Part shown: in pieces, positions 1,411-30,863 of the stretch | Numbering within the stretch: the stretch's first letter is position 1 | Layout of the letters: every line of letters starts with the position of its first letter | Assembly: GCA_903862655.1 (NCBI GenBank) | Contig: CAIOZA010000071.1 | Span: forward strand, 1 to 39,479 | Direction of reading: 5' to 3' | Length of the DNA: 39,479 nucleotides | Origin: an uncultured Ignavibacteria bacterium | GTDB lineage: Bacteria > Bacteroidota > Ignavibacteria > Kapaibacteriales > UBA2268 | Notes under the pieces: generated by a model | What the model was told of the DNA's origin: nothing | The model's input: only the letters and a program-made list of their open reading frames with translations | Databases searched by the model: none | Made by a program: the position numbers and the translations under genes

Positions 1411-2469
1411 TTATACTAAATCAGTATTATCAAATTCTTTAGATAATTCATTTTCAATATCTTCTATGCTCGGTAATGATGGTTTTAAGTGTTCCGGAAG
1501 GGCACGTGTTAGCTCATAATCGGATATGCCAATTGGTGTTTGTACTCCACGGAGTGCATATTCAGCAATGATTCGGTTCTTGTTTTCACATAGTATCAAA
1601 CCGATAGTTGGCTGGTCTTCAGGTTTTTTGAGTAAATTATCAACCGCAGCACAATAGAAGTTCATTTTACCGGCATATTCCGGTTTAAAATCACCCTTTT
1701 TTAGTTCGATGACAACAAAGCATCTCATGTGTAAATGATAGAATAACAAATCGATATAAAAATCCTGATCTCCTACTTCCAACCGATATTGCCTGCCTAA
1801 AAATGCGAAACCACTTCCCAGCTCCAATAAAAATTTTTCAATATGCTTTATTAGCTCTGTTTCCAGTTCTCGTTCGACAAATGGTTCCAGAATAGTTAAA
1901 AAATCGAAAATGTATGGGTCTTTTAACGTCTGTTTAGCAAGCTCTGATTGAGGATTCGTTAAATGTGTTTCGAAATTGGTGATAGCTGTCCCCTGTCTTT
2001 CATAAGTTTGTGATTTTATCATCAATGCTAAGACATCGCGGCTCCAGCCATTTTGCAGGGTTTGCTGCATATACCACACACGTTTAGAAAAATCTTTTAC
2101 TTTTTGTATGAGTATAATATGGTGTCCCCATGGAATATTAGAAATAATTTGTTTCCGGAATTCAGGTAGTGGCAAATTTGCAACAGGCTGTTGCAAATTT
2201 GAATATTCCTTAACAAATTGAAGCATATTGCCTAAATTTCTTTCTGAAAAACCTTTAACCTCCGGCAATTCATTTTTAAGATCGCCAGCTAATTTTGGAA
2301 TTACACCAGCCGACCATCCCTGCTCCTGTTGCCGTAGCTGAATCATTTTACCAATGTCCCAGTACATTCCGATCATCTCAGCATTGGCAGCCAAAGTAGC
2401 TTTAATCTGCGCTTGCTGGATACGGCCTTTAATATCCTTTAACAGGCTCGTATATATTGATAATTCCAT
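1411..2469 (-). CDS. PDDEXK nuclease domain-containing protein (DUF1016 / YhcG family)
   Basis: The 352-residue protein has the two-part layout of the YhcG family. An N-terminal DUF1016 helical domain (about 1-170) includes GMYWDIGKMI and the WGHHIILIQKVKD segment. A C-terminal PD-(D/E)XK nuclease-like domain (about 180-340) has candidate active-site residues Asp240 (YIDLLFYH), Glu255 and Lys257 (VIELKKG), followed by the conserved GLILCENKN strand. Length is typical for the family. Members are common in accessory regions and often sit near restriction-modification loci, but their biochemical role is poorly defined. No restriction or specificity genes are adjacent here. It is transcribed in the same direction as the nuclease downstream, with a 59-base gap. 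Confidence 0.9.
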   Translation of the reverse strand: MELSIYTSLLKDIKGRIQQAQIKATLAANAEMIGMYWDIGKMIQLRQQEQGWSAGVIPKLAGDLKNELPEVKGFSERNLGNMLQFVKEYSNLQQPVANLPLPEFRKQIISNIPWGHHIILIQKVKDFSKRVWYMQQTLQNGWSRDVLALMIKSQTYERQGTAITNFETHLTNPQSELAKQTLKDPYIFDFLTILEPFVERELETELIKHIEKFLLELGSGFAFLGRQYRLEVGDQDFYIDLLFYHLHMRCFVVIELKKGDFKPEYAGKMNFYCAAVDNLLKKPEDQPTIGLILCENKNRIIAEYALRGVQTPIGISDYELTRALPEHLKPSLPSIEDIENELSKEFDNTDLV

Positions 2470-6008: not shown

Positions 6009-6095
6009 CATGTTTTTTTTTGCAAGCAGGTCTTTCGGAATTGTAATCTGCTTCGGTGCTACCCCCCTGCCTACGCAAAGCCCCAACTGTTATGC
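6003..6095 (+). other. attC-like imperfect palindrome (candidate integron cassette site 1)
   Basis: Outer arms are GCATAACA (6003-6010) and TGTTATGC (6088-6095), perfect over 8 bp and containing the AAC/GTT trinucleotides expected of attC R boxes. After symmetric 8-base unpaired spacers come TTTGC (6019-6023) / GCAAA (6075-6079), then GCAGG (6026-6030) / CCTGC (6066-6070) with unequal 2- and 4-base gaps, and a central loop of about 35 bases. Length (93), box order, spacers and extra-helical bases all fit an attC hairpin. No integrase of the IntI type is in the window, so this would be a cassette cluster lacking an integrase. Confidence 0.5.
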
Positions 6096-6166
6096 CTCAT
6101 ATTAAAAAGACGACAGTGCAACATATGAACATTAAAAATATGAAGAAAAGAAAAGCCAACGCTTCT

Positions 6167-6232
6167 GCAAAATCAAAAGAGGTGCAACCCCACCTGCAAG
6201 CAATAATGCAGTTGCACCACATTTGGTTTTGC
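6167..6232. repeat. Long hairpin just upstream of the helicase-nuclease gene
   Basis: A 22-base arm (6167-6188, GCAAAATCAAA-aga-GGTGCAAC) faces a 22-base arm (6211-6232, GTTGCACC-aca-TTTGGTTTTGC) across a 22-base loop. Nineteen positions pair normally and one as G-U. The hairpin ends 20 bases before the ATG at 6253, so in mRNA it would sit in the leader. It could control translation or be a third cassette-type palindrome. Confidence 0.7.
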
Positions 6233-6252
6233 CCTAACACACTCCAACCATT

Positions 6253-9200
6253 ATGACTACACTTTTTTCAGGACAAATATTGCAAGGAGTTAAATCTCTT
6301 ATTGACCAAAGCGACAAAAAGGAGTTTTGGAAACAAATAGCAAAAGACCTTTCTGTTTTCTATTGCAAGAACAATCGAATAAACAGTGATGATAACGACC
6401 AAGAACATCCAATTTTTTCAGTCATTGACAACCAACTTTCAAGAGGGCTACCTACACTTTCATCTATTAATATTGAAAGACAATTTGCAGAAACCTTCGG
6501 CTTAACAGCCGAAGCTATCTCCAATATTGGTTCAATAACTTTTGATTTTTCAAAAGATGCAACTAATTTTTTGCGGTGCTTAATTATTGCTGACAGCAGA
6601 ACAAATGAACTAAACAGCGAAGAAACTTTTCAAACTTGGGAAATACACGGAGGAGGCGAATTTGAAAAAGTGTTTTTTGAAAATAGGTTTCTGCATTTCG
6701 GTAAGAAAACCAATCAGCTTTTGCAATTGCAAAGAACAATTAGTTCAATAGTTGGGGGCAGAATATCAGGACAGGATTTATTTTACGACCAAACAGCAGA
6801 TTTTCTATTAGAATTTCCGCAAACGGAAAATTTCCCGAAAGGTTTAGTAATTGAAATTGATGGAGGACAACACAATGTTGAGCCACAAATAAGCAAAGAC
6901 AATTTGCGAAAACATTTTGCAAATGAGAACGGCTACCAAACAGTAAGGATAAAAACAACAGAAGTAAATAATATTCCGCAAGACAAGAAGAATCAAATTG
7001 AACAATACTTACTGCACCCCTACTCTCAATTTTTTTCACAAAACATTTCAGCACCTTTATTCCAGACAGAAAACTGTTTGGAATACTTGCAACTATTCCT
7101 TTCTCCTTTTGCAATTGCAAGGGTTCAAAAAACATTTATAAAGGCAATCAAAAAAAACTTGATTGACATTACAAAAAAAGAAAATCTATCAATTGCAATC
7201 ATTGAAAGGGATTTGCCATGCGGCAAATCTGCAATTGCTGATTTGCTTATCCAGATTGAAAATTTATCTCTACTTCAAAATGGAGTAAGTCTTCGATTGC
7301 CTAATATTGATGTTTCAATTTTCAATACAGCCGAGTTTGCTGAGTGCAAACTCAATCAAGGAAACAACACACAACTTTTTTCAAATGATATTGATTTCAC
7401 ACAGTATGATTTGACTATTGATATTTCAGTTCTTAACAATTCAACTTTTCTAAACAAGCCGACTAGGACTTCACCGAACAAAACAATTGTTATTCGTTCC
7501 ATTCATCACACAGAAGAAAAACGGAAATTCAATTTTTACCCAACTATTGAATACACGAACGCACCAGCTAACAGAGAAAGTGAAGGCATTGAACAACTAA
7601 ACTTCTTTCTGCAATCACTTTTCAGAAAAAAATCTTTCCGAGAAGGACAAGTAGAAATTCTTTCAAAGGCATTGGAAAAGAAAAATCCAATTGCTCTTTT
7701 GCCAACAGGTGCAGGTAAATCTCTCACATATCAAATTGCTTCTTTGCTTCAAGCAGGTTTGACAATTGTTGTTGACCCGATAAAAGCATTAATGAAAGAC
7801 CAAGATGAAAATCTAAAGTCAGCTTCTATTGACGGAACTGTTTATATCAATTCATCTCTTTCAGCAGCGAAAAAGAAAGAGAATATCAAAAGGTATTCTG
7901 AAGGAGAATTTTTGTTTGCGTTCGTTTCACCTGAAAGATTCGTGATTGAAGATTTCAGAAATTCAATTGCATCAATTCCAAACTTTAATCGGAACTTTTC
8001 ATATTGCGTAATTGATGAAGCACATTGCGTTTCAGAATGGGGGCACGATTTCAGAACTGCATATTTGAAGTTAGGTGACAACTCAAGAAAGTTTTGTTTT
8101 TCTGGACACAACGGAGAAAATATTTCAACTCTTGGTTTAACAGGCACAGCTTCATTTGATGTGTTGAGTGATGTTCAAAGGGAAGTTGGTTTACAAAACG
8201 ATTCAGACATTATCAGACCAGATAAATTAGAACGGAAGGAATTAAAATTTAAAATCAAAAATGTAAACGCAGTTTTAAATGCTGCAAACAATGCTTGGAA
8301 TATTAGAACAGCAGTTTACAGCGACTCAAAAAATGTTTTGCTGAACACTTTGCGAACTGATTTAATGACAGAGTTTGATTCAGACAACTTTTCAGATTTT
8401 ATAAAAGCAAATGGAGCAGATTCAAATTGCGGTCTAATCTTTTGTCCTCATGCAACAGGAACGGACATCAGCGTTCAATTGATTGCAAATTTTTTAAGAA
8501 CAAGTTTTCCGACTGTTGCTCATTTAATCGGAGAGTATCACGGAAGCGGAGATAATAATGACGACATACAAGATGCTTTTAAAGCAAACAGGATTACACT
8601 TCTTATTGCAACCAAAGCATTTGGAATGGGCATTGACAAGCCCAACATTCGCTTTACGGTTCATATTACACACCCAATTTCAATTGAAGGATTTTATCAG
8701 GAAGCAGGTAGAGCAGGCAGAGATAGAGAAAATGCAGTTTGCTACATTCTTCATTGCAACAATCTAAGATTGCCAAACGCAAACACAGCAGCAAAAGACA
8801 TTCAAGACAGTTTTTTATATAACAGTTTCAAAGGAAGAAATTTTGAAAAGAGTATCACCTTTGAAATGTTAGACAGAATCACATTTCCACATACACCAAA
8901 GAAAAATCAAGTTGAACAAGAAATTTTTGAGGACACAGGAAAGGAAATAAAATTTGGAAACCCTTTTCCTGCAAACCAACCACATACCCTTTACATCAAT
9001 GGGGAACAGTTCGGACAAAATTATGGAAGCATAAATATCAATACGCTAAACATAAACGCAAATGGTAACAACATGCTTTCACAAGCGGAAGCAGTTGATT
9101 TGCTTCAAGCCATTTCAAATAAAATCAGAGAACAGAAACCTGCAAATGTTGATTTGCTTTCATGGTTAAACAGCACACATCGAACACAAGACCAACAAGG

Positions 9201-10290
9201 TTTAGAGAAACTTCTTCAAAGTATTCCAGCGAATCAAACACAATCCCTTACAATCGGATTGGAGAATGACGGCATCCAACGAGTAGTTGATTTTTTACAA
9301 CCTCAATACATTGACTTTGATTATTCACTTGTAAAAAAGGCAACAGGTTTTTGCAGAAGCGATGATGATTTCGTTGACAATTTAATTTACAACTATAGGA
9401 GAAAAACAAATGCTGCAATCACTTTTAATCAAATTCAAATTGCAGAGTTAAAAACTCTTTACACTAAAATCAGATTAGACAACGACACACTAAAAACAAT
9501 TTATCGTCTTTCAATTTTAGGAGTGATTGAAGATTATACAATTCAATATCCTTCTTTGGTTACAGTCATTTGCAAAAAAATATCGGACACAGAAATTCTA
9601 AACAATCTTGAAAGGTATGTTGAACGCTATCTAACAAGAATTTCAGCACAAGCAGTAAGAACAGATGCACCAAGTAGAGATCAACCTACCATGCTTCGCA
9701 ATTGTGTTGACTACTTGATTGATTTTACTTATGACAAAGTTTTTGATAAGCGAAAGAAAGCCCTTGACAATATTGAAGAAGCTGTTGTAGCAGGACTTAC
9801 CGACAACGAAGGATTTATAAGAACAGTAAATGACTATTTTGATTCGCAGTATGTAGAGGAACTTTACAAGGCAACATCAGGAGGAGACGAATTTGATTTT
9901 GATATTCTTTTCAACTACATAAAAATAGTTGGTGACGACAAAAACTTACAACAACAATTAAGAGGTTCTGCAAATAGATTGCTTGAATCAAATCCAGACA
10001 ATCCAGTTTTCAGTTGGTTAGTTTATTACAGTTCAATTCTACTGAAAGACCGAGATAACAAAAAGGTGCAAGAGTATTTTGAAAATGGTTTTAAGTATTA
10101 TTACAACGAGGGGAACGGTTACAGCTATGAAGACATTGACAACGAAATAGAAAAATTGAGTTTAGAAATTCAACGACACGACAATGACAGTTATGCAAAT
10201 CACATCAAACAAATTGAAACTTTACAAGCAAAGTTTGCATCAGGTAAAATATTATCCTTTAACCAAAATTTTTTAGAGCAATATGTTTAA
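6253..10290 (+). CDS. Nuclease-helicase fusion: DUF559/Vsr-like PD-(D/E)XK domain + RecQ-like DEAH helicase
   Basis: This 1345-residue protein is the largest in the window. Residues about 150-260 look like a DUF559/Vsr-type PD-(D/E)XK nuclease: Asp183 in TADFLLEF, then IEIDGGQHN with Glu201/Asp203/Gln206, then a D-x-x-R helix (NLRKHF) and the terminal VRIKTTEV strand. Residues 455-830 form a RecQ-type superfamily 2 helicase: FREGQ motif 0, PTGAGKS Walker A (484-490), DEAHCVSEWGHDFR (588-601), LGLTGTAS motif III, LLIATKAFGMGIDKPNIR motif V and YQEAGRAGRDR motif VI (ending near 825). The C-terminal 500 residues match nothing I know; I see no RQC zinc cysteines or HRDC domain. Family knowledge predicts ATP-driven DNA unwinding coupled to cleavage; a phage-defence role is inference. 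The stop overlaps the start of the next gene by 8 bases. Attc-like palindromes flank the pair. Confidence 0.85.
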   Translation: MTTLFSGQILQGVKSLIDQSDKKEFWKQIAKDLSVFYCKNNRINSDDNDQEHPIFSVIDNQLSRGLPTLSSINIERQFAETFGLTAEAISNIGSITFDFSKDATNFLRCLIIADSRTNELNSEETFQTWEIHGGGEFEKVFFENRFLHFGKKTNQLLQLQRTISSIVGGRISGQDLFYDQTADFLLEFPQTENFPKGLVIEIDGGQHNVEPQISKDNLRKHFANENGYQTVRIKTTEVNNIPQDKKNQIEQYLLHPYSQFFSQNISAPLFQTENCLEYLQLFLSPFAIARVQKTFIKAIKKNLIDITKKENLSIAIIERDLPCGKSAIADLLIQIENLSLLQNGVSLRLPNIDVSIFNTAEFAECKLNQGNNTQLFSNDIDFTQYDLTIDISVLNNSTFLNKPTRTSPNKTIVIRSIHHTEEKRKFNFYPTIEYTNAPANRESEGIEQLNFFLQSLFRKKSFREGQVEILSKALEKKNPIALLPTGAGKSLTYQIASLLQAGLTIVVDPIKALMKDQDENLKSASIDGTVYINSSLSAAKKKENIKRYSEGEFLFAFVSPERFVIEDFRNSIASIPNFNRNFSYCVIDEAHCVSEWGHDFRTAYLKLGDNSRKFCFSGHNGENISTLGLTGTASFDVLSDVQREVGLQNDSDIIRPDKLERKELKFKIKNVNAVLNAANNAWNIRTAVYSDSKNVLLNTLRTDLMTEFDSDNFSDFIKANGADSNCGLIFCPHATGTDISVQLIANFLRTSFPTVAHLIGEYHGSGDNNDDIQDAFKANRITLLIATKAFGMGIDKPNIRFTVHITHPISIEGFYQEAGRAGRDRENAVCYILHCNNLRLPNANTAAKDIQDSFLYNSFKGRNFEKSITFEMLDRITFPHTPKKNQVEQEIFEDTGKEIKFGNPFPANQPHTLYINGEQFGQNYGSININTLNINANGNNMLSQAEAVDLLQAISNKIREQKPANVDLLSWLNSTHRTQDQQGLEKLLQSIPANQTQSLTIGLENDGIQRVVDFLQPQYIDFDYSLVKKATGFCRSDDDFVDNLIYNYRRKTNAAITFNQIQIAELKTLYTKIRLDNDTLKTIYRLSILGVIEDYTIQYPSLVTVICKKISDTEILNNLERYVERYLTRISAQAVRTDAPSRDQPTMLRNCVDYLIDFTYDKVFDKRKKALDNIEEAVVAGLTDNEGFIRTVNDYFDSQYVEELYKATSGGDEFDFDILFNYIKIVGDDKNLQQQLRGSANRLLESNPDNPVFSWLVYYSSILLKDRDNKKVQEYFENGFKYYYNEGNGYSYEDIDNEIEKLSLEIQRHDNDSYANHIKQIETLQAKFASGKILSFNQNFLEQYV

Positions 10291-10624
10291 AGAACTTAAC
10301 GACAACTTAAACTCCATAAATGGAGAAGTTACAAAACTCAAAACGGCTGTTGAGCATATTGACACTGCAAAATCAGCCGCACAAGCAGCAGTGAACGCAG
10401 CGAACACAACGAACGCAGAGTTCAAAGAACATTTGCAGAAAGTGACCAAGGCAGTTGATTCAATTCTTAAACCGCATCAAGATTTAATTGCAGCGACAGA
10501 AAATTTAACCAAGACAATTGAAGCCATTGACTTTCCAAAGCAACTTAAATTAATTAAGATAATTGCAATTGGGACTGGTGCAGTTGCTCTAATAGGGACT
10601 ATATTAATTTTGATATTAAAGTAA
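10283..10624 (+). CDS. Small coiled-coil protein with C-terminal membrane anchor, partner of the helicase-nuclease
   Basis: The ATG at 10283 lies inside the last codons of the helicase gene (8-base overlap), so translation is probably coupled. The 113-residue product is a long amphipathic helix: LNDNLNSINGEVTKLKTAVE, an Ala-rich stretch with two AA(V/N)AA runs, then EHLQKVTKAVDSILKPH. Residues about 90-112 form one hydrophobic segment (KIIAIGTGAVALIGTILILI) ending in a single Lys. This is the shape of a tail-anchored membrane protein with an oligomerising cytoplasmic coiled coil. Such small membrane partners of DNA-sensing enzymes occur in abortive-infection systems, which is why the pair stands out. 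I recognise no named family. Confidence 0.75.
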   Translation: MFKELNDNLNSINGEVTKLKTAVEHIDTAKSAAQAAVNAANTTNAEFKEHLQKVTKAVDSILKPHQDLIAATENLTKTIEAIDFPKQLKLIKIIAIGTGAVALIGTILILILK

Positions 10625-10635
10625 TGCCGCCCCTT

Positions 10636-10701
10636 TTGGTAACACATTTGCAGTTTTTACAAACGCACTTAGCAAGACAAGAACGGCAAAAGAGCTACCA
10701 A
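10636..10701 (+). other. attC-like imperfect palindrome (candidate integron cassette site 2)
   Basis: Outer arms are TTGGTAAC (10636-10643) and GCTACCAA (10694-10701), pairing at 7 of 8 positions and starting 12 bases after the stop of the coiled-coil gene. Inside symmetric 3-base spacers lie TTTGC (10647-10651) and GCAAA (10686-10690), the same box sequence as in the site at 6003-6095, then GTT (10653-10655) / AAC (10682-10684). The layout mirrors attC, although the right arm has GCT where GTT is expected, so recombination competence is doubtful. Confidence 0.45.
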
Positions 10702-11060
10702 GCCAACGCACAACGTCAAGGCAAACTGGACAGATAGAACAATGATAAAATAGAACAAAGGCACAACAAAGGCTCTTTGCAGTCTGGGTTTCAGCAGTAA
10801 TTCAAGCATTCTGTCCTTCATAATATTTTTGTCGGTCGACACGAAAGTAGCTCGCAAACCATTACTGCATTAAGTTTCGTCCGGTATAATTAATCATAAA
10901 TCAACAGAGGTGTAAGTTTAGTTAATGCAGATAAATGCGATTTATGAACAAAAGTTCAAAACAAACAACAATTTATGACCTCAATGCAAACAGTATATTT
11001 TATTGCTTACAGTGGTTGGTTGCTGTGATTATTCAGTCGATGTCAACTGATAATTAATTT
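10702..11060. other. Gene-free stretch after the cassette-like array
   Basis: About 360 bases without a convincing gene. The first part (10702-10760) contains CCAACGCACAACGTCAAGGC, GC-richer than its surroundings and probably still part of the palindromic cassette end. A 37-codon frame at 10944-11057 with a hydrophobic middle exists, but I do not regard it as supported. Confidence 0.4.
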
Positions 11061-11748: not shown

Positions 11749-12930
11749 TCAGGTACGCTTGGTATTTAAATGTTTTAACAAATCAATGATCATAATATTT
11801 CTATCATCATTCAGTTTTCTCATTATATCAAAACCAACATTTTCCCATGGTATTTGATTTTCATACTTAATAAAAAAATCAAGTGATAAATTCTGGAAAT
11901 TTAATGCATGGTTCATACTCCAATCCCAAAACCCCATTGTATCCTCATACAACTTTTCATTCCAGTTAATTCCTTGATTAGTTAATAACCAATCCCACCG
12001 CCATTTGGAAATATGCTTGAATATCAACTCTTTACTCCAAGGAACATTAGGATTGAGGGACAAACGCTTATAGTCCCACCGATCTTCATATTTCAAGAAA
12101 AACTCTTGATTCCATGGTAATGATCTGTTCCATGATAACATTTCCCAATCCCACTGATCAAGATGTTTCTCGAAAAAGTCTAATTTCATTTTATAAGTAG
12201 TATTGTGAAATAATAGATGCCACACCCAAAACCTTCTAAACAACAGAAAAATCTTTTTAGTTATTGGCGCATTCCTATTTGCAGAAAGTGTTTTCCAATC
12301 CCACCGAAAAGTGAAACGTTCTATTGTCTCCAAATTACAATTTTTTGCAATAGATATACTAAAAGATAGGTTATCCCAATTTATTTGATTTTCATGTTCA
12401 AATAAAGTATCTAAATCCCATTGTGTAGATTTATTGCAGCACAACATATTCCAATCTATTTGGACATGATATTTGTTAATCAGTTCTTTATTCCAATTTA
12501 TTCCTTCATTTCTGCTCAACCAGAACCAATTCCAATTTTCTTTATGTTCTTCAATAAAATTATTTGACCATAGCAGGTTCTCATTATCGGATAATGCAGC
12601 CCAGTTTGATTCTGTTAGGTCTTCAAAGGGGAGATCGTCAAAATTTAGTTTCTCACCTACAATATTAAGGCAGACATATTCTGTGTCAAGAAGGTTCCAG
12701 TATTTTTTCACAAATTCCGATGACCATGGTAAATTAGTATTCATTGATAACCCCCATGTATCATGTTCGTCAGAGCTTGTCCAATGAAGGATACCTCCAA
12801 ATTCATCTAATTCTTCTTCTGTAAATGGATAATAGTTTGAAACTGTGTGAAGAAAGTAGTCAGGATGACGTAAAAGAAGGTCATGAATTATCTGCTTTTC
12901 CCTCTTATCATTGGGTTGCTGATTGTTCAT
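11749..12930 (-). CDS. Trp-rich 25-residue repeat protein, paralogue A
   Basis: This 393-residue cytoplasmic-looking protein consists of a conserved N-terminal cap (IIHDLLLRHPDYFLHTVS, YPFTEEELDEFG) and about a dozen repeats of 25 residues. The repeat consensus is roughly W-D-W-x2-L-S-x-N-x3-P-W-S-x-E-L-I-x-K-Y-x3; for example WDWEMLSWNRSLPWNQEF and WDYKRLSLNPNVPWSKEL begin exactly 25 residues apart. The regular Trp pairs suggest a stacked solenoid used for binding. It is the last of three tandem paralogues (100 bases after B). I know visually similar 'WDW...LSxN' repeats from giant-virus and Bacteroidota hypothetical proteins, but no function. No signal peptide or enzymatic motif is visible. 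Confidence 0.7.
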   Translation of the reverse strand: MNNQQPNDKREKQIIHDLLLRHPDYFLHTVSNYYPFTEEELDEFGGILHWTSSDEHDTWGLSMNTNLPWSSEFVKKYWNLLDTEYVCLNIVGEKLNFDDLPFEDLTESNWAALSDNENLLWSNNFIEEHKENWNWFWLSRNEGINWNKELINKYHVQIDWNMLCCNKSTQWDLDTLFEHENQINWDNLSFSISIAKNCNLETIERFTFRWDWKTLSANRNAPITKKIFLLFRRFWVWHLLFHNTTYKMKLDFFEKHLDQWDWEMLSWNRSLPWNQEFFLKYEDRWDYKRLSLNPNVPWSKELIFKHISKWRWDWLLTNQGINWNEKLYEDTMGFWDWSMNHALNFQNLSLDFFIKYENQIPWENVGFDIMRKLNDDRNIMIIDLLKHLNTKRT

Positions 12931-13030
12931 ATTATAGGATATTTCATTATATCTTTAATGGTGAAGTCGGTTAATGAATTTGTAATCTATTTAATATTAT
13001 GAAATAAATATAAAATATAAAGAAAAATAG

Positions 13031-14215
13031 TTATAAAGTATTGGATTTTATACGTTTTAACAATACTATAACCTTATTTTTTCGATCGTAATTGCTCAAC
13101 CTTTCCATAATATCAGAAACAACCACCTCCCAAGTTAATTCATCCTCATGTTTAAGAATAAATTCTAAAGAGACAAAATTTGTTTTTAGATTGTTTGAAA
13201 ACGTCCTCATATCTAACATCTCCATAGCTTTTTCGCATAACATATCATCCCATTTAATTGCATTATTTTGAAGCAAATACTCCCAATTCCACCGACCTGA
13301 ATATCTTAAAATCAACTCTTTGCTCCATGGAACCTTCATATTTAAAGACAAACTATCAAAGTTCCATTGAGACTCATGTTTTAAAAAGAAATCCAATGAC
13401 CACAGCAATGATGTGTTCCACGACAAAAAATCCCAATCCAAGTTTTCAATGTTATTATCAATGAATATGCTATCCATTTTAAAATTGGAATTACCTGATA
13501 ACATACCCCAATCCCAACGGTCTTTGTACATATTAAAAAGCTCTATACCCATTGGAATGTTTTCATTTGCAGAAAGATTTCGCCAATCCCATTTATCAAT
13601 AAAAGCATCAATTATACTATTGCAATTATCGATTGACAATGTAATATTTGATGAAAGAGCGTTCCAGAATAATTGATTTTTATATGTTTGTAATAGGTCT
13701 AATTCCCACTGAACTGAGGTATTGTAACATAACATTTTCCAATCTAAGTGGTCTAAAAAAGTATGAATCAATTCTTTATCCCATTTGATAGCCTCATTTT
13801 TACATAATATTGACCAATCCCATTTTTCTTTATGCTTTTCGATAAAACGACTATTCCATAAAAGCTTCTCATTCCCGGATAAAATCAACCAACATGCTTC
13901 AGTTAACATTTCATATGGTATTGATTCCAATCCAATAGCTTCACCAACAATATACTCGCAAATAACTTCTATATCTAATCTATGCTGGTACTTATCAATA
14001 AAATCAGACGACCATTTTAAGTTGTAATTCCATGATAAGCCATAACCAAAGTGTTTATTGTCACCTTTCCATAATAGGATATCTCCAAATTCATCTAATT
14101 CTTCTTCCGAAAATGGATAATTTATTGAAACCATTCGAAGGAAGTATTCTATATGACGAAAAAGGAGGTCATGTATTATCTCATTCTCTGAATTATTGGA
14201 TTTCTGGTTTATCAT
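13031..14215 (-). CDS. Trp-rich 25-residue repeat protein, paralogue B
   Basis: At 394 residues this is the closest relative of paralogue A, with the same cap (IIHDLLFRHIEYFLRMVS, YPFSEEELDEFGDI) and the same number and register of repeats, such as WDWRNLSANENIPMGIEL and WDWGMLSGNSNFKMD. The repeats diverge mostly at the surface-type positions between the conserved Trp, Leu-Ser and Asn positions, as expected for a binding solenoid with changing specificity. It is the middle of the three genes: 40 bases after C and 100 bases before A. Function unknown. Confidence 0.7.
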   Translation of the reverse strand: MINQKSNNSENEIIHDLLFRHIEYFLRMVSINYPFSEEELDEFGDILLWKGDNKHFGYGLSWNYNLKWSSDFIDKYQHRLDIEVICEYIVGEAIGLESIPYEMLTEACWLILSGNEKLLWNSRFIEKHKEKWDWSILCKNEAIKWDKELIHTFLDHLDWKMLCYNTSVQWELDLLQTYKNQLFWNALSSNITLSIDNCNSIIDAFIDKWDWRNLSANENIPMGIELFNMYKDRWDWGMLSGNSNFKMDSIFIDNNIENLDWDFLSWNTSLLWSLDFFLKHESQWNFDSLSLNMKVPWSKELILRYSGRWNWEYLLQNNAIKWDDMLCEKAMEMLDMRTFSNNLKTNFVSLEFILKHEDELTWEVVVSDIMERLSNYDRKNKVIVLLKRIKSNTL

Positions 14216-14255
14216 GGCTGATTTTGAAGGGAGAAATTATCTGCTGGAATCAAAA

Positions 14256-15425
14256 TTAGAATTCAAAGGAATAGTTCATTACATCGAGCAATTCTATAAC
14301 CACATCATGCGCATCTTCATCAGAAAGTTCAGTTAATACATTACGTGATAAATATTTCCAGTCAATTAAATCCTCATATTTTAGCAAAAAATGCAGTGAA
14401 AACATGTTGTATGGTATGCAATTAGATAATACTGTCCAATCCCAATTATAAATAAAAGTATCAATGAGTTCTTCAGACCAAGGTAAGCCTGAATTGAGCG
14501 GAAGGTTATACCAAAAAAATTTATTACTATTTTCAGCAAGAAAGTCCTTTGTCCACGGCAGAGCAACGTTATAAGATAGTAACTGAAAGTCCCATTTATC
14601 CAGATAACGATTGAAGAATTCAACTGACCAAGGCAAATTTTCAATCAACGAAAGCAATTTCATATCCCATCTTGACAGGTATTTTTCAAAAAGTTGGACA
14701 GACCATGGGAGATCTGAATTAATTGATAGATTTTCCCAATTGAGTTTTTCTTTAAATTTCTCAATAAAATCTTCTGTCCAGAACTTCGAATGATTGGAAG
14801 ATAGTTCTTCCCAGTTTATCTTATCACTAAATTTATCAATAAGTTTGTAAATATCATCGCAACTGAACTGCCCTTGGCTTGATAAATTTCCCCAATGTAT
14901 TAACTGCTTGTATTTGTTAATTAATTCAATTGACCAGATGACATCACTATTTCCGCATAATGATTTCCAATTAATGTATTTGTGGTAGTTGTCTATAAGA
15001 TTTTCATTCCATAATATTGAGTTATTACCGGAAAGCCATTTCCAATCCCATTGTTCTTTATGATTTTCAATTAGTTCAGTTGTCCATTGGATATTTGAGT
15101 TACAAGATAAAGCCTCCCAATCACAATATTTAGCCATTTCTGACAGTAAATTATTATTCCATAATTTATTACCGATGATATGATATCCAATGACTCTAAA
15201 ATCAAATTTTTGATCATATTTCTTAAGTATATTTACCGACCATGGAAGATTCCCATTCTCAGATAACCCATGGTTAGCCCCATATCCTTCAATATCTTTC
15301 CACCTAAGTAAATGACCATATTTATCCAATTCCTCTTCCGAAAAGGGGTAAGTCGTTGAAACTAACAATATAAAATAGTCTTTATGGCGACTTAGTAAGT
15401 CGTAAATCTGGATTTTATTTTTCAA
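14256..15425 (-). CDS. Trp-rich 25-residue repeat protein, paralogue C
   Basis: The first gene of the tandem trio, 389 residues. Cap: QIYDLLSRHKDYFILLVS, YPFSEEELDKYGHL. Repeats such as WDWKWLSGNNSILWNENL, NWENLSINSDLPWSVQLF and WDFQLLSYNVALPWTKDF keep the 25-residue period. It is more diverged from A and B than they are from each other, judging by eye, so A and B probably arose by the later duplication. It lies 24 bases after the gene at 15450-16367, so the group is likely one operon. Confidence 0.7.
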   Translation of the reverse strand: MKNKIQIYDLLSRHKDYFILLVSTTYPFSEEELDKYGHLLRWKDIEGYGANHGLSENGNLPWSVNILKKYDQKFDFRVIGYHIIGNKLWNNNLLSEMAKYCDWEALSCNSNIQWTTELIENHKEQWDWKWLSGNNSILWNENLIDNYHKYINWKSLCGNSDVIWSIELINKYKQLIHWGNLSSQGQFSCDDIYKLIDKFSDKINWEELSSNHSKFWTEDFIEKFKEKLNWENLSINSDLPWSVQLFEKYLSRWDMKLLSLIENLPWSVEFFNRYLDKWDFQLLSYNVALPWTKDFLAENSNKFFWYNLPLNSGLPWSEELIDTFIYNWDWTVLSNCIPYNMFSLHFLLKYEDLIDWKYLSRNVLTELSDEDAHDVVIELLDVMNYSFEF

Positions 15426-15449
15426 AGTATATTTATATCATGTTTTTAT

Positions 15450-16367
15450 TTAACTGCACGTAAAACAATGGTTATCAAAGTTATGAAGAAAAATAATAGT
15501 CGGAATATAGTCATAAACGGAAACAGAATTAAGAATTTTCTTTACTCTGTGGTCGTATCCCTTCATCATTCCATCATCATAAATAAAATACGGGCAAAGA
15601 GAATAAGCCTCATTGAAATGATCTCGATACTTCGTTATCCATTTCAATAAAAGCAGTTGATTGTTTATGCTAAAATTGTAAAATTCTTTATTCGCCTTTA
15701 CTGAAATCTCATCAAATTGCTGGTGTTCTTCAAGGTCTTTTAAATGATAATATAAATATTTAAAAGAATTGAACGCCATATAATCCGAAAGTGCCGGTGG
15801 TAACATACTATGATATAGTTCATTATGTTTTTCCAACCAATAAATAGCCACATCCCTTGTTAAATTGTCGCCCACCATATTATAAAGCTCATCTATAGCT
15901 GAATCACATTGTTGTAACTTGATTGAATAGTTTACTGATGGCTTAAAAGTTGCTTCTTCGTCCTTTTTAATCTTAATGTCTAATGAGCTATACTTTTTTA
16001 GTTTCAATGTTTGTTTTGGTATTGAAAACTCAGTGCAATGGTAAATATCCAGAATATCGGACTCGGTTTCTTCAAAAATTAATTTCATATAGAGATTTGA
16101 TTTATTACCGACGAAAGCATAGCCGCTTTTCCCTCGATTTGGACATTCTTTTGATCTACACCTTCCATAGCATTGAAAAAGCTCCGTATCTTCATGCTTT
16201 TTGAACTGAATAAATATTTCCTGTAGTTTTTCTAAAAATGTTTCCTTTGTAGCATCCTGATAGGTTTTATTATCATCCAACAAAATCTGGAGCTGTCCGA
16301 TATCCATTTTGGAGAAAGCATTGAATATCTGCTGCTTTTTTGATTGATAGTTAATGAGTTCATTCAT
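15450..16367 (-). CDS. Hypothetical protein with a Cys cluster, first gene of the Trp-repeat operon
   Basis: A 305-residue soluble protein of unknown function. Residues about 65-80 hold a compact cysteine cluster (CYGRCRSKECPNRGKSGY) that could bind zinc, followed by a beta-rich region (YMKLIFEETESDILDIYHC) and a helical C-terminal half. I have seen the 'GRCxSKxCPNxGxxGYxFxGN' pattern in unannotated Bacteroidota proteins. The three repeat proteins follow on the same strand with short gaps, making it the probable operon leader. Its start faces a 370-base gap holding a terminator for the operon upstream. Confidence 0.6.
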   Translation of the reverse strand: MNELINYQSKKQQIFNAFSKMDIGQLQILLDDNKTYQDATKETFLEKLQEIFIQFKKHEDTELFQCYGRCRSKECPNRGKSGYAFVGNKSNLYMKLIFEETESDILDIYHCTEFSIPKQTLKLKKYSSLDIKIKKDEEATFKPSVNYSIKLQQCDSAIDELYNMVGDNLTRDVAIYWLEKHNELYHSMLPPALSDYMAFNSFKYLYYHLKDLEEHQQFDEISVKANKEFYNFSINNQLLLLKWITKYRDHFNEAYSLCPYFIYDDGMMKGYDHRVKKILNSVSVYDYIPTIIFLHNFDNHCFTCS

Positions 16368-16425
16368 AGATATTACTTTGTTTTATTGGGATGGTATTTG
16401 TACTATCAGGTAAGATCACTGGGAA

Positions 16426-16437
16426 GTTAAATTTAAC
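16426..16437. repeat. 12-bp perfect palindrome
   Basis: GTTAAATTTAAC is self-complementary and lies 60 bases upstream of the gene starting at 16367 and 6 bases from the terminator hairpin. It could be an operator for the Trp-repeat operon, though AT-rich palindromes this short also arise by chance. Confidence 0.35.
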
Positions 16438-16443
16438 AGAATA

Positions 16444-16470
16444 ACCTCCCTTTGTTGGTAAAAGGGAGGT
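16444..16470 (-). terminator. Terminator-type hairpin downstream of the methyltransferase operon
   Basis: ACCTCCCTTT (16444-16453) and AAAGGGAGGT (16461-16470) form a perfect 10-bp stem with a 7-base loop. It lies about 270 bases past the stop of the gene at 16739-17170 and before the next operon. On the minus strand the stem is followed only by a loose T-containing stretch, so strength is uncertain. The remainder of the 16368-16738 gap holds no gene I can see. Confidence 0.55.
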
Positions 16471-16738
16471 CTCAAAATTAATATAATGGGTAGAAAATGT
16501 AACAAGTGTTAATAAGATAATAGCTTCACATTATCAGCAACTTAAGGAATTTGTTGATAACAATATTTAATAGCTTCAGACGAAACAATTAAAGAAAAAT
16601 CGGGATCGGCGTTTGGCTAAGGTTATCAATAATCCTGTCTACCAAAGTATACGGAAATTATAATAAAGAATCAGGTGTTTCATCCTATTGGGTAAGCAAA
16701 TATCCACCCCATTAAAATCTAAAGTAATCTACCAGTCT

Positions 16739-17170
16739 CTATTTTTCAAATAGCGTAATTTCCAAAGCTTTCTCAAATTCGCCATTTCGAATATATTCTT
16801 CAACTAACTGAACTATATCCGGATCTGTCCATATCTTCCAATTGTTTCCAAAAGCTGATAAACAGTTCTTATCAAGCCGTAAATAAATCCAATTTGCACC
16901 GAACTTATATGGAGCTGTTGGGTAATATTTGTTTATTGTACCTGCTTGCTCAATTTTTAAATATGGAATTACTGTAGCAGAAAATGACACAGGAGTGATC
17001 TCAATTTCCTGAACACTTGCGACACACATGAATTTATCATAATACACTATTTTAAAACCTGTTAGATTACTAAAAATCGGAGTAAATATCTTGCGCCGCA
17101 GCTTGCTATCAATCGGAATGCTATTAATATCAATCTCAGAATATTTCTCCTTGAGTTCTTTTATTGTCAT
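16739..17170 (-). CDS. Hypothetical protein co-transcribed with the methyltransferase
   Basis: A 143-residue soluble protein with no recognised domain. It has a helical start (MTIKELKEKYSEIDINSIPI), a central beta-rich part (VASVQEIEITPVSFSATVI, YKFGANWIYLRLDKN) and a helical end (DIVQLVEEYIRNGEFEKALE). It begins 30 bases after the methyltransferase stop, so the two probably share a transcript. It is too small and motif-poor to be an obvious restriction enzyme, but its position makes it the first candidate partner. Confidence 0.55.
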   Translation of the reverse strand: MTIKELKEKYSEIDINSIPIDSKLRRKIFTPIFSNLTGFKIVYYDKFMCVASVQEIEITPVSFSATVIPYLKIEQAGTINKYYPTAPYKFGANWIYLRLDKNCLSAFGNNWKIWTDPDIVQLVEEYIRNGEFEKALEITLFEK

Positions 17171-17200
17171 TCGTTTCAGGTTTTGATTTCCACATAAAAG

Positions 17201-18040
17201 TCATTCAATTTCTTCAGAATAATCATCAAAACTTTCTTTTATCCATTTGATAAAAGGTTCGCCATGGTAACCACGCTCCCAAACAAACCAAGCGAATGAT
17301 ATCATACCTGCGTTTTGGAGTTTAATACCGGATTTTGAAATTGTAACCCGCTTACTGAATTGATAAACAGTTTTGAGTGGAAATTCTTTGTCTTGAAACA
17401 TCTCGTATCGTTCGAGGCTTTCCAGAAAAACAGTCTTTAGTAAAAATGCTATCTTATGATTAGCCAATTTTTTAGCATGTTCAATAAATTCCAAAGCCAG
17501 TTTAAATGGTGGATTTGAAACAATATTATCACAAAGAAAGTCGGCTATTAGAAAGTCCAACTGATAACCGAATCCTCGGTAAATTAAATCCGTACTGATA
17601 ACTTCATAGCCTTTCTCTATGAATACTTTACTGATATTTCCAGTAGCACAAGCTGGTTCCCAGATTTTCCCAATAAATTCTTCTTGGCTTAACAGAGCAT
17701 ATACTACCCATGGATCGGTTGGGTAAAAATCATGTTTTTCCCTGTTACCAGAATTTCGGCTTGCGCCAGCAATACTTTGTCCGATAATATTACTGGAATT
17801 TGTTCCTGTACTTGATATTTCCCAAATAGATTCGTTTGTAATGACAGGTGCTTTAGGATTACATATAGTGAGACGCTGTATGGAAATATCACCATTTACA
17901 TACGCTTGCTTTCTTTTACTTATCCGATAATTGATTTTCGTTTTCTCGATAAATAACTCGGGATGATTGGATATTAGTACAGTCAAAGAACTGTAAATTT
18001 CAATTGTTTTTTGTGATTTATAGAGTACAACACGGCTCAT
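17201..18040 (-). CDS. Class I SAM-dependent DNA adenine methyltransferase (orphan)
   Basis: The 279-residue protein carries the two hallmark motifs of an amino-methyltransferase: the SAM-binding loop EPACATGNIS (about 128-137) and the catalytic NPPF (176-179) typical of N6-adenine enzymes. A FYPTD element (105-109) precedes motif I, as in phage- and element-borne adenine methylases. Residues 1-100 are an extra N-terminal region with no known domain. No restriction enzyme is adjacent, so it is probably an orphan protecting or marking element DNA, but the partner at 16739 could be functional. The 395-base gap upstream presumably holds its promoter. The methyltransferase call is firm; target base and site are inferred. 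Confidence 0.8.
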   Translation of the reverse strand: MSRVVLYKSQKTIEIYSSLTVLISNHPELFIEKTKINYRISKRKQAYVNGDISIQRLTICNPKAPVITNESIWEISSTGTNSSNIIGQSIAGASRNSGNREKHDFYPTDPWVVYALLSQEEFIGKIWEPACATGNISKVFIEKGYEVISTDLIYRGFGYQLDFLIADFLCDNIVSNPPFKLALEFIEHAKKLANHKIAFLLKTVFLESLERYEMFQDKEFPLKTVYQFSKRVTISKSGIKLQNAGMISFAWFVWERGYHGEPFIKWIKESFDDYSEEIE

Positions 18041-18435
18041 TATTTCAATTTTACTGCTAATATATACTTAATCCACATTAGTTTTCGAAATAGCCATTAT
18101 AATGTAAATATTGGTCATTTCATTCAAACATGGGTCGATAGTATATACATCGCTTAATATCATCGAAAAGAATTACCCGACATCGTTCTGAAATAACGAT
18201 TTGCTTTAGCCAAGAACTTCATATTCCCGAAAACGTTCCCGAATATTGTATAAAAATAGGCTTTAAAAAGTCATTTTTCGGGATGCGCGAATGTTGTATG
18301 TGCGTGGTACTCAATATATTCATTATTTTAAGGCAGGAATTCTATACATGTATATATAAAAGAAAATATTTTTTTGTACACCTTTTTATAATTCTGTAGT
18401 TATTTACCAAGTCTAACCAAATTCAACATTCGCTG
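18041..18435. other. Gene-free upstream region of the methyltransferase with inverted repeats
   Basis: About 395 bases between the helicase-primase stop and the methyltransferase start, no gene seen. It contains ATCGTT...AACGAT (about 18183-18200), a direct pair of TTCCCGAA around 18224-18243, and TCCCGAAAA (18225-18233) facing TTTTCGGGA (18275-18283). The latter stem of 9 bp could be an operator or a terminator for the large gene upstream. Confidence 0.45.
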
Positions 18436-21400
18436 TTATTTGTTTATTCTATAAATATATTTCTTGTAACTATTGTTAATATTCCTCGATTCACATTTTA
18501 AGCTACCACTACTTTTAATTAACTGCTTGACGTATAACCTATCTGTAAGTAAGTGCTTAGATGTAAAAGATGTATCAGTTAAAAGACTATCTATAACTAA
18601 CTTGTACTCCACATACTTAATATTCTTTATGGTATAGCCAGTTAATTCACTAACTTTTTGTTCCATGTTAACCACAATATCTCTAAGAAGTAAAGATAAA
18701 TTTCCCAGCTCATTTGTTGATGACATATATTTTAACTCGACAGATCTAACCGCTGTCTTGTAATCCCTGTCCCTTTTAAATATTAAGGATAAAACATCTT
18801 CCCTATTTAACCCAATATCCCTCGATAACAAATCAGTAAATCGAATACTCCATAAAATCAAATATTTATTCCGCACCTTGTTTTTGCTCCCACAATATAT
18901 ATTATCATAAAATGTGTTATCAAAATGTTCGTTACATGACTTATCACAACTGAATAAATAACAAGAAATTATCCTATCAATATTTTCTTTAAAGAAGACT
19001 TCATATTCAGTGATATTATGTGTTTCTGGTGACATCTCAATATTAATATCATTATCGTAAACAGAGTCCTTTACGCTAAAAAACTGGTCATAATAATAAT
19101 TTAACAAAATGTAGCTGTGAATATTGAGTTGTTTATGAAACTCACCCACTACCTCTTTTTTAATAATATCCGCGTTAACGTAATATTTTCCGTTAACTAC
19201 ATAGAGCTTTTCAAGTGATATTTTATCAGTGAATGTCGATTTCTTCTTATTGATACTATCACATATTAAAGTCCACTGATTTAGTTGCTCTACATAATTG
19301 TCATTGAGTCTCCCATATTTTTCCATGAAATCAGCATATTTGAGGTACTTTATCTTACGTTTACGAGTAAATATCACCAAATTGATATTGTTCTTCACCC
19401 TACGGAATCGACTGATTAGTTGATAAACTGTAAGATATGTGATGAATGAATTATCATAAACAAATACATCATCCCATGATTCATTAAGAAAATTAACACC
19501 GTCATTTACGAGCTCCGTGACGATATAATGTGTGTCCGTCAATATTGAATAACGCATCACCTCTCGGTATTGCGGTGTATTTTTCTCATTTGATGTCAGT
19601 AAAACCGAATTGATATTGTACAGTTTCTTCATGTTATCTGCGAATAACTGCGCTTTTGCTTTATCATTAATAAAAAAGAGTTGTCGCTTTGCTGGGTCAA
19701 CATGTTTTAACATTGTATCAAGTTGTTTGGAACAATAATGATATTCCATGCTTGGTTTAAGAGCTAAAGCTTTGCGAATTTTAATATAGTAATATTCACT
19801 TCTATCCAAGCCGACCAAATAATCTTCCGGTGTAGCACTCATCATTATTGTAATATCAGCAGGAACAACAGCAAATGGCTTACTCTGGTTAGGTAAAGTA
19901 CTATAATGAACCATCTTGTGACACTCATCGTAAACAGCGATATTTATTGGATAAAGCTCCTGCTTAGTGTGCTGATAACTACTCAACACAGCACATTCGC
20001 CATAACCAGCATTGTAATTTGATGGTAAGTCATCAGTTGTAAACCCTCTTACAAATTCATCACCATAAATTTTATCCTCCTTCAATTGACATAATATTGA
20101 ATTTACAGGACTGAAAATGTGATTGTTCTTGTTCTGAATAATATTTTTAAGAACCATACGACTGAAATAATAATTCTTACCGCTACCAGTATCGCCGTTT
20201 ATTACAATTGCTTTATGGGTCTTGCTTTTTTCAAGTATAACTTTCCATAATTCATCCGATATTTCATCAAAAATATTTGTTGTAATGTTAAATATTTTAT
20301 CGAATGTATTACCGTAACTATCCTTATTGAGTTCCTGAGTGCGCTGTATAAACTTCTTTTGAGCTGGAGTTTTTATCCCCCAATTTAATAATGTACTGGC
20401 GAATGTTCGGGGACTAAAATCAGCATATTTCCTTACTGCTTGGAGTTTCTTCTGAAAATATTCGAATGAAACCAGATATGGTTTGAGAGAATCACCGGAA
20501 TAAAACTGGTTAAAACAGTTATAAGCAAATCGTTGACAATTTTCCCCTTCCAACAGCATCGTACATTTTAATGGGAAATTATCAAAATGAAGGAAATGTG
20601 GTTTTAATTTCTCTTTGATGTTGTAATCGTTTCGGTCTAAATATTTATTTAATTTTTCGTAATCGCAGGAATCCTCAAAATTCGTGGAATCAGATGGAGT
20701 TGTGGTTATTCTCTTGGGTTCGATATAAGTGATCTCATTTTTACACCAGAAAACATTTACTGAATTACTGTTGTCAAAGAAATATTCGTCGTCCCACAAT
20801 TGAAAGCTCGCCTGAGTAATGTTATCTCTCGATGAAAGGTCAACATATTGTTGTTCGTTGTACGTCGACTGCTGTTCTTTGTCTTCACTCTCATACGCTG
20901 TTAGACCGTATTGCTCATTTAAATATTGTAGAACCTCGTTATACATTGATTTAAAGACATCTTCATTCCTTGCTATGGTATGGTCATTTTGATGCTTGTT
21001 GGTATAAATGCTATGAAATACTGGTACATAGAACCTTATCGCATAGCTTGCTGACAGACCACCAAACCAGATAAATGGATCCTGACGTAGAGCGAGAATA
21101 AAGGAATATTGATCAACATTACAATCTGTAACGAATTGCTCAAATGCTTTTTTGGTCTTAAAATCAATATCGAACTGGAGAACCTGAGCATTTAAAATTT
21201 CGGTCTTGGCTTTTCGCTTGGTGATATTTTTTAACCGATGACTACAGTAGCAGAGCTTGTTCTTTTTGGTGGGATCCAGCGATATCATTCCAGTGGGGTA
21301 GTCTTCAAAATTGTAGCATCTGCTGTATTTTGTTAAAAAGTCGAGTTCATTACTTTCATTCGTAAACGACCGATATTCATAACCCTCGAATTGCTTTTTA

Positions 21401-21462: not shown

Positions 21463-21586
21463 CCTAAATGGAGATGTCTTTTATATCATTTAAAAAGCAA
21501 TTTGTTTATTTTAATTTAATTAGGTGAAATGTTATTGTTTTTGGGGCGATGGATTGTTGTTTTTAGAGAAAATTAATTCAAAACCG

Positions 21587-25082: not shown

Positions 25083-25137
25083 TATTGATTATTAAATAAA
25101 GTAGTAGCTGAAACATCAAATAATAAGCCACTTTAGG

Positions 25138-25374: not shown

Positions 25375-25399
25375 GGTTAAGAGTTTTGAAGATTAATAT

Positions 25400-28303: not shown

Positions 28304-28551
28304 TTATTAAAGAATTCAGAATCCGAACATAAAGTCGACATGAAATCATCATAATTAAAGATTAGATGACCTCAACACATTATAATTACGGAAAGGTGGG
28401 AAATCCGAATGAAGAAACAGAACCTAACTGATAAACGTATGCCAATATATGATAATCCACATGATTTTACGCATGAACGGTTATCCCCAAAATTGAAATT
28501 GAAATCCCAATATTAGCAAATTACAAGCAGTTAGTTTTTTAACCAGAGCCT

Positions 28552-29130: not shown

Positions 29131-29284
29131 CTTTTACAAGTATTGAAATTGCTATTATTCACTATAATGCGACTGTAGGATAAGTTTATAGAGTAAACCT
29201 CATAGCTTAATAAAATGGCGATACTGGATGAATTTATATTCTACAAAAAAGTATGACTTTTAAACCCACTGTCACTTCCCTACA

Positions 29285-29339: not shown

Positions 29340-29363
29340 AAGGTTAGATTTTTAATCGCTTTT

Positions 29364-30857: not shown

Positions 30858-30863
30858 TTTATT

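What the first reader, a model, noticed from the sequence alone, without database searches (positions are those of the whole stretch)
6253..10624. Candidate undescribed defence module: PD-(D/E)XK + RecQ-like fusion with a coupled tail-anchored coiled coil
Seen: a DUF559/Vsr-like nuclease site (Asp183, IEID 200-203), a full RecQ-type motif set, a 500-residue novel C-terminus without RQC or HRDC, and an overlapping gene for a coiled-coil protein with one C-terminal TM helix. Established: nuclease-helicase fusions with small membrane partners occur in abortive-infection systems. Inference: DNA sensing by the fusion, and signalling or damage at the membrane by the partner.
Basis: partly seen in the sequence, partly recalled or inferred. 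Interest (0 to 1): 0.85.

Follow-up and report, generated by a model that had tools for sequence, protein, structure and literature searches.

The report
Membrane-tethered helicase-nuclease defence gene pair
Two overlapping bacterial genes, one for a DNA-unwinding and probably DNA-cutting protein and one for a rod-like protein with a membrane tail, travel together across many bacteria and look like a so far unnamed anti-virus system.

Summary
Window 6253-10290 (1345 aa) has a Vsr/DUF559-type PD-(D/E)XK site (D183, E201, D203), a RecQ-family core (450-834) and a long C-terminus without RQC or HRDC. It overlaps by 8 nt a 113-aa coiled coil with one C-terminal TM segment.

It belongs to a mobile two-gene family. 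In 29 of 32 members the downstream partner could be assessed: 25 have exactly one C-terminal TM segment, and the 28 tested for a heptad repeat show one. RecQ controls: 0 of 11. The helicases form one branch apart from 23 ordinary RecQs (100/99).

The nuclease is the less constant part (26 of 32). Some members carry other fused domains: HAD plus ShosT-type PRTase with a ShosA/DprA gene (E. coli, Klebsiella) or a protein kinase.

Best reading: an anti-phage or anti-plasmid system whose partner tethers a DNA-sensing helicase-nuclease to the inner membrane. Defence is likely and tethering plausible; membrane damage by the partner is not supported. I found no named system of this make-up in the libraries and papers searched. 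Nothing was tested at the bench, and both structure models were too poor to use.

The parts
6253..10290 (+). RecQ-family helicase with N-terminal Vsr/DUF559-type PD-(D/E)XK nuclease and long unclassified C-terminus, 1345 aa
6799..7005 (+). Nuclease site region: D183 to residue 251 (E201-I-D203)
   Evidence: Pfam DUF559 24.3 bits; invariant residues; solved Vsr-like and PvuRts1I chains match the N-terminal profile weakly, E 0.004-0.04
7600..8754 (+). RecQ-family helicase core (residues 450-834): Walker A 482-490, DEAH 588-591, motif VI 816-823
8755..10287 (+). C-terminal region (835-1345), no RQC/HRDC, conserved patches about 1085-1256; fold model unreliable
10283..10624 (+). Overlapping partner gene: coiled coil with one C-terminal TM segment, 113 aa
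6070..6252 (+). Conserved leader with a hairpin (about 6167-6231), inside the stretch shared with L021 and L022
10625..10734 (+). Conserved trailer with CACATTTGC..GCAAAAGAG (10643-10694), right edge of homology to L021; its fold is no better than shuffles in the window copy (z -0.48), better in L021 and L115

Best explanation
The pair is a mobile anti-invader (anti-phage or anti-plasmid) system. The big protein is the DNA-sensing part: its RecQ-type motor engages unusual DNA (ends, ssDNA, forks) of an incoming or replicating element, and motor action switches on the fused Vsr/DUF559-type nuclease (or, in other members, a different fused domain). The small protein is a tail-anchored coiled-coil tether. 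Its conserved N-terminal part most likely binds the C-terminal region of the helicase, its variable rod sets reach and oligomeric state, and its TM (or basic/aromatic) tail holds the complex at the inner membrane, where phage or plasmid DNA enters. Shown: architecture, conserved catalytic residues, conserved pairing, transfer as a gene pair, fusions with known defence parts in some members. Inferred: defence function, DNA substrate, order of events, docking, tethering, DNA cutting.
For: Pairing: 29 of 32 members have an assessable partner; 25 of 29 have exactly one TM stretch at the C-end; of the 28 tested for heptad repeats, at most 9 of 500 shuffles reached the observed value. Controls: ordinary RecQ genes 0 of 11 (in two of these the next gene was cut), other genes of the same loci 1 of 187. 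One branch apart from 23 RecQs, 100/99. Mobility: homology to L021 stops at the module's edges; plasmids; 7 of 5426 E. coli genomes, 3 chromosomal and 4 plasmid places. Defence links: ShosA-type DprA upstream (E 1.9e-65) and ShosT-type N-terminus (4.2e-8) in L026; near a type I R-M system in E. coli; retron-type RT upstream in L057 and L069. Docking: a leave-one-out profile scores the partner's first 90 aa above its middle in 14 of 19 long partners. On one Rhodothermus plasmid a second pair, a different helicase-like protein plus its own tail-anchored coiled coil, shares an 80-aa stretch at the helicase C-end (33%, pairwise E 2e-6) and the first 80 aa of the coiled coil (33%, pairwise E 4e-7) with the RecQ pair next to it.
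Against: No activity has been measured. AlphaFold models of both unknown regions are unusable (mean pLDDT 46.8 and 41.1), so docking is inferred. The N-terminal profile fails for 5 of 19 long partners (L027, L073, L079, L081, L084). Only 12 of the 148 pooled neighbour proteins were read one by one against PADLOC, without a control set, so neighbourhood enrichment is not quantified. In L081, L084 and L027, and by eye L085, the partner has no TM segment. Six of 32 members lack the nuclease motif. Two of the 7 E. coli copies are interrupted by IS elements (H54, H56). Some members sit beside housekeeping genes: L028 and L029, L111.
Confidence: 0.5

Rival explanations
1. Abortive-infection system in which the helicase-nuclease is the sensor and the tail-anchored coiled coil is the killer: it oligomerises and damages or depolarises the membrane.
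For: Single C-terminal TM segment in 25 of 29 assessable partners. PMC9122126 (passages) says that transmembrane proteins in known systems are believed to be suicide effectors.
Against: Partner lengths 107-501 aa; in one supported clade the TM tail (L083) is replaced by a basic/aromatic tail (L081, L084, L085) with the pair otherwise kept. The big protein already carries an effector-like nuclease, and other enzyme domains occur in its place or beside it.
Confidence: 0.15
2. Toxin-antitoxin-like guard of the PsyrTA/RqlHI type: the helicase protein is a genotoxin and the small protein is its antitoxin, holding it at the membrane until infection breaks the complex.
For: RqlH toxicity is restrained by RqlI (PMC4670107, passages); overlapping or closely spaced genes; ShosT/PsyrT-like parts and a DprA gene in L026, HAD-DprA gene in L027.
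Against: No DprA among the 29 window proteins scanned; the only PRTase-fold protein there is a PRPP synthetase 27 kb away. The partner is a coiled coil. No toxicity data.
Confidence: 0.2
3. DNA repair or plasmid/chromosome maintenance function at the membrane, carried by mobile elements but not defensive.
For: RecQ family; several copies on plasmids and some beside housekeeping genes.
Against: Patchy (21 of 395 genomes of the phylum sample, the window's own included), mobile, varied enzyme domains, DprA/ShosT, kinase and retron-type associations.
Confidence: 0.12

Closest known systems
PsyrTA / RqlHI
   Same: RecQ-type helicase as the large subunit of a two-gene system; PADLOC PsyrT model matches the helicase region (6.2e-63, residues 448-860).
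   Different: RqlH is 698 aa with a C-terminal PRTase and its partner RqlI is a 400-aa protein with DprA homology (PMC4670107, passages); here a DUF559 nuclease, another C-terminus and a tail-anchored coiled coil, and no DprA found in the window.
ShosTA
   Same: The E. coli/Klebsiella member (L026) has a ShosA-type DprA gene and a ShosT-type PRTase region after a HAD domain.
   Different: Seen in that branch only (a HAD-DprA gene and a PsyrT/ShosT-like end also occur in L027); neither ShosT nor ShosA was found in the window.
Hachiman (HamAB)
   Same: Works-like analogue: sensor helicase controlling a nuclease that degrades DNA when damage is sensed (PMC12278908, abstract).
   Different: HamA is DUF1837 and a separate protein; here the nuclease is fused; no HamA or HamB match. 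That Hachiman lacks a tail-anchored partner is recalled.
Zorya
   Same: Works-like analogue: membrane part with an elongated cytoplasmic tail and a DNA-nicking effector (PMC11890865, abstract).
   Different: ZorAB is a MotAB-like motor (same abstract); here one TM segment and no MotA/ZorA domain.
Dpd system DpdF
   Same: Best PADLOC match of the helicase core (258 bits).
   Different: NCBIfam DpdF 149.5 bits against a cut-off of 550.
Ordinary RecQ
   Same: Helicase core of the RecQ family.
   Different: Separate branch, no RQC/HRDC match, fused nuclease, partner gene.

Membership tests
RecQ family helicase (broad) | RecQ-family helicase core scoring above the subfamily cut-off | tested here: met
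   TIGR00614 225.6 vs 219.8 bits
Ordinary RecQ (equivalog) | RecQ equivalog score, RQC/HRDC C-terminus | tested here: not met
   253 vs 640 bits; no RQC/HRDC in Pfam; C-termini align over 41 columns only. The deep-branching L111 has a weak RecQ zinc-binding match below cut-off.
PsyrTA/RqlHI | RecQ-type helicase with C-terminal PRTase | tested here: not met
   no PRTase in the window protein; PsyrT model matches the helicase part only
PsyrTA/RqlHI | adjacent DprA-like partner | tested here: not met
   partner is a coiled coil; no DprA among the 29 window proteins scanned with Pfam
ShosTA | PRTase-type ShosT plus DprA-type ShosA | tested here: not met
   not matched in the window proteins scanned; matched in branch L026
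Dpd (DpdF) | DpdF equivalog score | tested here: not met
   149.5 vs 550 bits
Zorya | ZorA MotA/ExbB domain and ZorB | tested here: not met
   partner matches only the ZorA tail region, E 0.0006; one TM segment
Hachiman | HamA DUF1837 nuclease and HamB | tested here: not met
   no HamA/HamB match for either protein
PD-(D/E)XK nuclease, Vsr/DUF559 type | conserved D...E-x-D site in DUF559 profile | tested here: met
   24.3 vs 20.6 bits; D183, E201, D203 invariant in 6 members; motif in 26 of 32 members
PD-(D/E)XK nuclease, Vsr/DUF559 type | DNA cleavage | not testable with these tools
   no assay
Tail-anchored coiled-coil protein | single TM segment at the C-end and heptad repeat | tested here: met
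Anti-phage defence system | reduces infection when expressed | not testable with these tools
   needs phage challenge
Retron | RT plus msr-msd RNA with this module as effector | tested here: inconclusive
   RT in 2 of 148 pooled neighbour proteins, upstream in L057 and L069; no retron RNA in Rfam at E<=0.5; no RT among the 29 window proteins scanned

The most novel reading that the evidence does not exclude
A previously unrecognised modular immune platform: a helicase whose C-terminal end is read by a tail-anchored coiled-coil adaptor, onto which evolution plugs different enzymes (DUF559 nuclease, ShosT-type HAD-PRTase with ShosA/DprA, protein kinase, possibly methyltransferase-like or exonuclease-like domains) and even a different helicase type (the UvrD-like pair in Rhodothermus), so that one membrane-docking rule serves many invader-sensing machines.
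Probability: 0.42. Interest if true: 0.85.

Novelty: new variant of a known kind. Interest (0 to 1): 0.73.

Why it matters
Helicase-nuclease defence systems are known, but how they are directed to invading DNA is mostly open. A widely paired, length-variable, membrane-anchored coiled coil whose docking region seems shared even by a different helicase offers a direct test of whether immune helicases are stationed at the membrane. The E. coli/Klebsiella branch makes this testable in laboratory E. coli, and it joins ShosTA-type parts to a RecQ-type sensor, which may help explain what DprA-type antitoxins sense.

Tried and rejected
A tblastn of the partner in the phage collection found nothing, as did a near search of the L026 operon there. 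The genes upstream are not related across the 18 stretches compared, except the two RTs, so a constant third gene is not supported. An integron array around the window was considered from an attC-like end at 6080 and dropped: matches in the window were not clearly above chance (10 of 100 and 3 of 100 shuffles reach them). Searching genomes of Pseudomonadota was not possible. The SF1-like protein was found in 2 of 390 genomes, both of one genus. A scan of viral contigs for the trailer hairpin gave 53 stretches, about what I roughly expect by chance (my estimate, not computed), and was not used.

Rows dropped: G047 is the same plasmid as L025 and was counted once. L076 and L077 are near-copies and were both counted. 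G016, G261 and G411 have open frames of 631-734 aa, were taken as ordinary RecQs by size, and their downstream genes were not examined. L079 fails the strict one-TM test only by a second stretch at the threshold (1.61). The first RecQ control was useless because most loci ended at the gene; it was redone, where 9 of 20 loci still held under 600 downstream bases and were left out of the denominator, and in 2 of the 11 counted (L098, L100) the next gene ran off the stretch.

Full report
WHAT IS THERE. The window is contig C71 of a genome of 4.07 Mb in 148 contigs. ORF 6253-10290 encodes 1345 aa and ORF 10283-10624 encodes 113 aa, overlapping by 8 nt. In Pfam the large protein has DEAD, Helicase_C and DUF559 above their cut-offs; RQC and HRDC are not among its matches. 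In NCBIfam it passes the RecQ subfamily cut-off and fails the RecQ and DpdF equivalog cut-offs. In PADLOC its matches lie in the helicase region: DpdF, PsyrT and other helicase models. D183, E201 and D203 are invariant in six members. The N-terminal profile weakly finds a solved mobile intron protein and PvuRts1I (E 0.004 to 0.02). The small protein has one C-terminal hydrophobic stretch and a heptad-like hydrophobic period that none of 500 shuffles reaches.

HOW WIDE. A profile of six members found 24 of 395 genomes of the phylum at E<=1e-60. Three of these (G016, G261, G411) have RecQ-sized frames and I take them as ordinary RecQs; 21, the window's own included, carry the family. Others lie on plasmids of Salinibacter, Haliscomenobacter, Rhodothermus, Thermomicrobium and Deinococcus, on Klebsiella, Raoultella and E. 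coli plasmids, in 7 of 5426 complete E. coli genomes, two of them interrupted by IS elements, and on three viral contigs (L056-L058). An 82%-identical copy lies on a contig labelled Limnohabitans and a truncated 74% copy on a Chitinophagaceae contig. In a tree of helicase cores the 31 family rows are one side of a single branch (100/99) against 23 ordinary RecQ rows. The tree holds no PsyrT, RqlH or DpdF rows, so the nearest named relative is not settled.

THE PARTNER. Thirty-two members were examined in the final count. In 29 the partner gene could be assessed; in two the contig ends (L022, L074); in L085 the helicase frame is broken, though reading the three frames shows a related coiled coil. 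Twenty-eight of the 29 partners were tested for a heptad repeat (L111 was not), plus the partner of the second Rhodothermus pair; at most 9 of 500 shuffles reached the observed value. Twenty-five have exactly one TM stretch within 12 residues of the C-end. L079 has that stretch plus a second one at the threshold. L027, L081 and L084 have none; L081 and L084, and by eye L085, end in a short basic/aromatic tail. L083, which groups with those three at 100/100, keeps a TM tail. Controls with the same test: 0 of 11 ordinary RecQ genes with at least 600 bases held downstream (9 of 20 loci held less, and in 2 of the 11 the next gene was cut), and 1 of 187 other genes of at least 200 aa in the same loci. 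That one proved to be a second pair: on Rhodothermus pRMAR01 a UvrD/SF1-like protein (weak Pfam match, E 0.0045, below cut-off; the rest is my reading of its motifs; no PADLOC match) is followed by its own tail-anchored coiled coil. The two large proteins share an 80-aa stretch at their C-ends (33%, pairwise E 2e-6) and the two coiled coils their first 80 aa (33%, pairwise E 4e-7); the pair recurs in a second genome of the same genus. A leave-one-out profile of partner N-termini scored the N-terminus above the middle in 14 of 19 partners of at least 195 aa, and not in L027, L073, L079, L081 and L084. I read this as a conserved docking end on a variable rod.

VARIABLE PARTS. The nuclease motif is present in 26 of 32. 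It is missing in L027, L075, L078, L080, L085 and L111, which still have a coiled-coil gene (L085 by eye). Fused N-terminal domains: HAD (3.9e-18) and a ShosT-type PRTase region (4.2e-8) in L026, which also has a ShosA-type DprA gene upstream (1.9e-65); a protein kinase in L085 (1.3e-31); a weak methyltransferase-like match in L080 (0.0016, below cut-off) with a similar motif by eye in L056; a DnaQ-like look in L078 that is my reading only. In Deinococcus (L027) a gene with SngC-like helicase and PsyrT/ShosT-like regions precedes the RecQ gene, and a HAD-DprA fusion gene follows the coiled coil. L111 has a weak RecQ zinc-binding match below cut-off.

MOBILITY AND NEIGHBOURS. Window and L021 are alike only from 6070 to 10734, with unrelated flanks. 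In E. coli PSS-10 the operon sits near a type I R-M system, in Klebsiella near a type I R subunit gene, in Salinibacter near a DNA methyltransferase gene. Of ten neighbour proteins read singly in PADLOC, two are retron-type RTs, one is DarG, one a type II/IIG methyltransferase and one an LmuA-profile match that Pfam calls a trypsin-like protease; the other five had none. Four further neighbours (in L023, L024, L057, L069) had none. In the pooled scan of 148 neighbours the RT families were matched by two members; the rest of that list could not be assigned to proteins. Two neighbours each of L028 and L029 are metabolic or housekeeping-type proteins or DUF1015, and L111 lies among respiratory genes. 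The window itself also holds a YhcG-type nuclease gene (PDC-S02), an IetA-like AAA gene, an integrase and a tRNA-Leu. Enrichment was not measured against a control.

MECHANISM. Shown: parts, pairing, transfer, fusions. Inferred: that the system is defensive (about 0.8 in my judgement), that the motor senses abnormal DNA and switches on the fused enzyme, and that the partner is a membrane tether. Hachiman (PMC12278908, abstract) and Zorya (PMC11890865, abstract) show that helicase-controlled nucleases and membrane-anchored tails with DNA-nicking effectors exist; by the tests above the pair is a member of neither. The killer-at-the-membrane idea is weakened by the exchange of TM tail for peptide tail within one clade and by the constant rod architecture.

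NOVELTY. Ten paper searches were made in the held library, nine of them on this kind of system; I saw their listings, passages of five papers and two abstracts. None showed a system of this make-up. Most subscription papers are outside that library, and PADLOC-DB is of 2023. So it is unnamed as far as I could look, not proven unpublished.

Noticed in passing
window 10638-10699; also L021 14384-14435, L082 12923-12973, L115 3011-3061: A hairpin-like element CACATTTGC..GCAAAAGAG with varying but complementary stems sits 17-19 nt after the partner gene here and in L021, after that of a distant family member (L082), and after an unrelated DEAD/DEAH helicase-family gene on a Chryseobacterium plasmid. 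The pattern has 49 matches in 34 of 390 genomes of the phylum, none for the reversed control, and lies 17-30 nt after a same-strand stop in 14 of 33 rows, one pair being a duplicate. As ssDNA the L021 and L115 copies fold better than shuffles (z -2.95, -4.44), the window and L082 copies do not (-0.48, -0.40). It may be a cassette-boundary, REP- or attC-like element.
   Followed up: partly
window 6167-6231: Leader hairpin with the mirrored CAAAAGAG..CACATTTG core; its inner stem covaries between window and L021 (GGTGCAAC/GTTGCACC vs GCTGCAAC/GTTGCAGC), z -4.48 and -4.01 as ssDNA.
   Followed up: partly
L025 11025-14640 (-); L109 1498-5104: UvrD/SF1-like protein paired with its own tail-anchored coiled coil, sharing both presumed docking ends with the RecQ pair next door.
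   Followed up: partly
L057 5872-7191; L069 7671-8630: Retron-type reverse transcriptase genes two genes upstream of the module, same strand; no msr-msd search beyond Rfam.
   Followed up: partly
window 11749-22144 (-): Run of same-strand genes for unclassified proteins around a 1008-aa helicase-like protein (weak DEAD match, below cut-off); only one weak PADLOC match. Possibly another unnamed system.
   Followed up: no
window 1411-2469 (-): YhcG/DUF1016 PD-(D/E)XK protein, PADLOC PDC-S02 (1.5e-147).
   Followed up: no
window 34096-35775 (-): AAA ATPase resembling IetA (3.8e-22) between an integrase (31753-32340) and tRNA-Leu (36632-36716): perhaps an island edge.
   Followed up: no
window 24235-31746 (-): Duplicated small genes (repeats of 60-275 nt) beside a 967-aa Laminin_G/Fib_succ_major protein.
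   Followed up: no
window 36814-36901 and 39277-39479: Arrays of 7-nt tandem units (CTGCTTT; GGAGGCA-like), the second running to the contig end.
   Followed up: no
L021 9573-9998: The 82%-identical copy has an extra 141-aa ORF between the conserved leader and the helicase gene, absent in the window.
   Followed up: no
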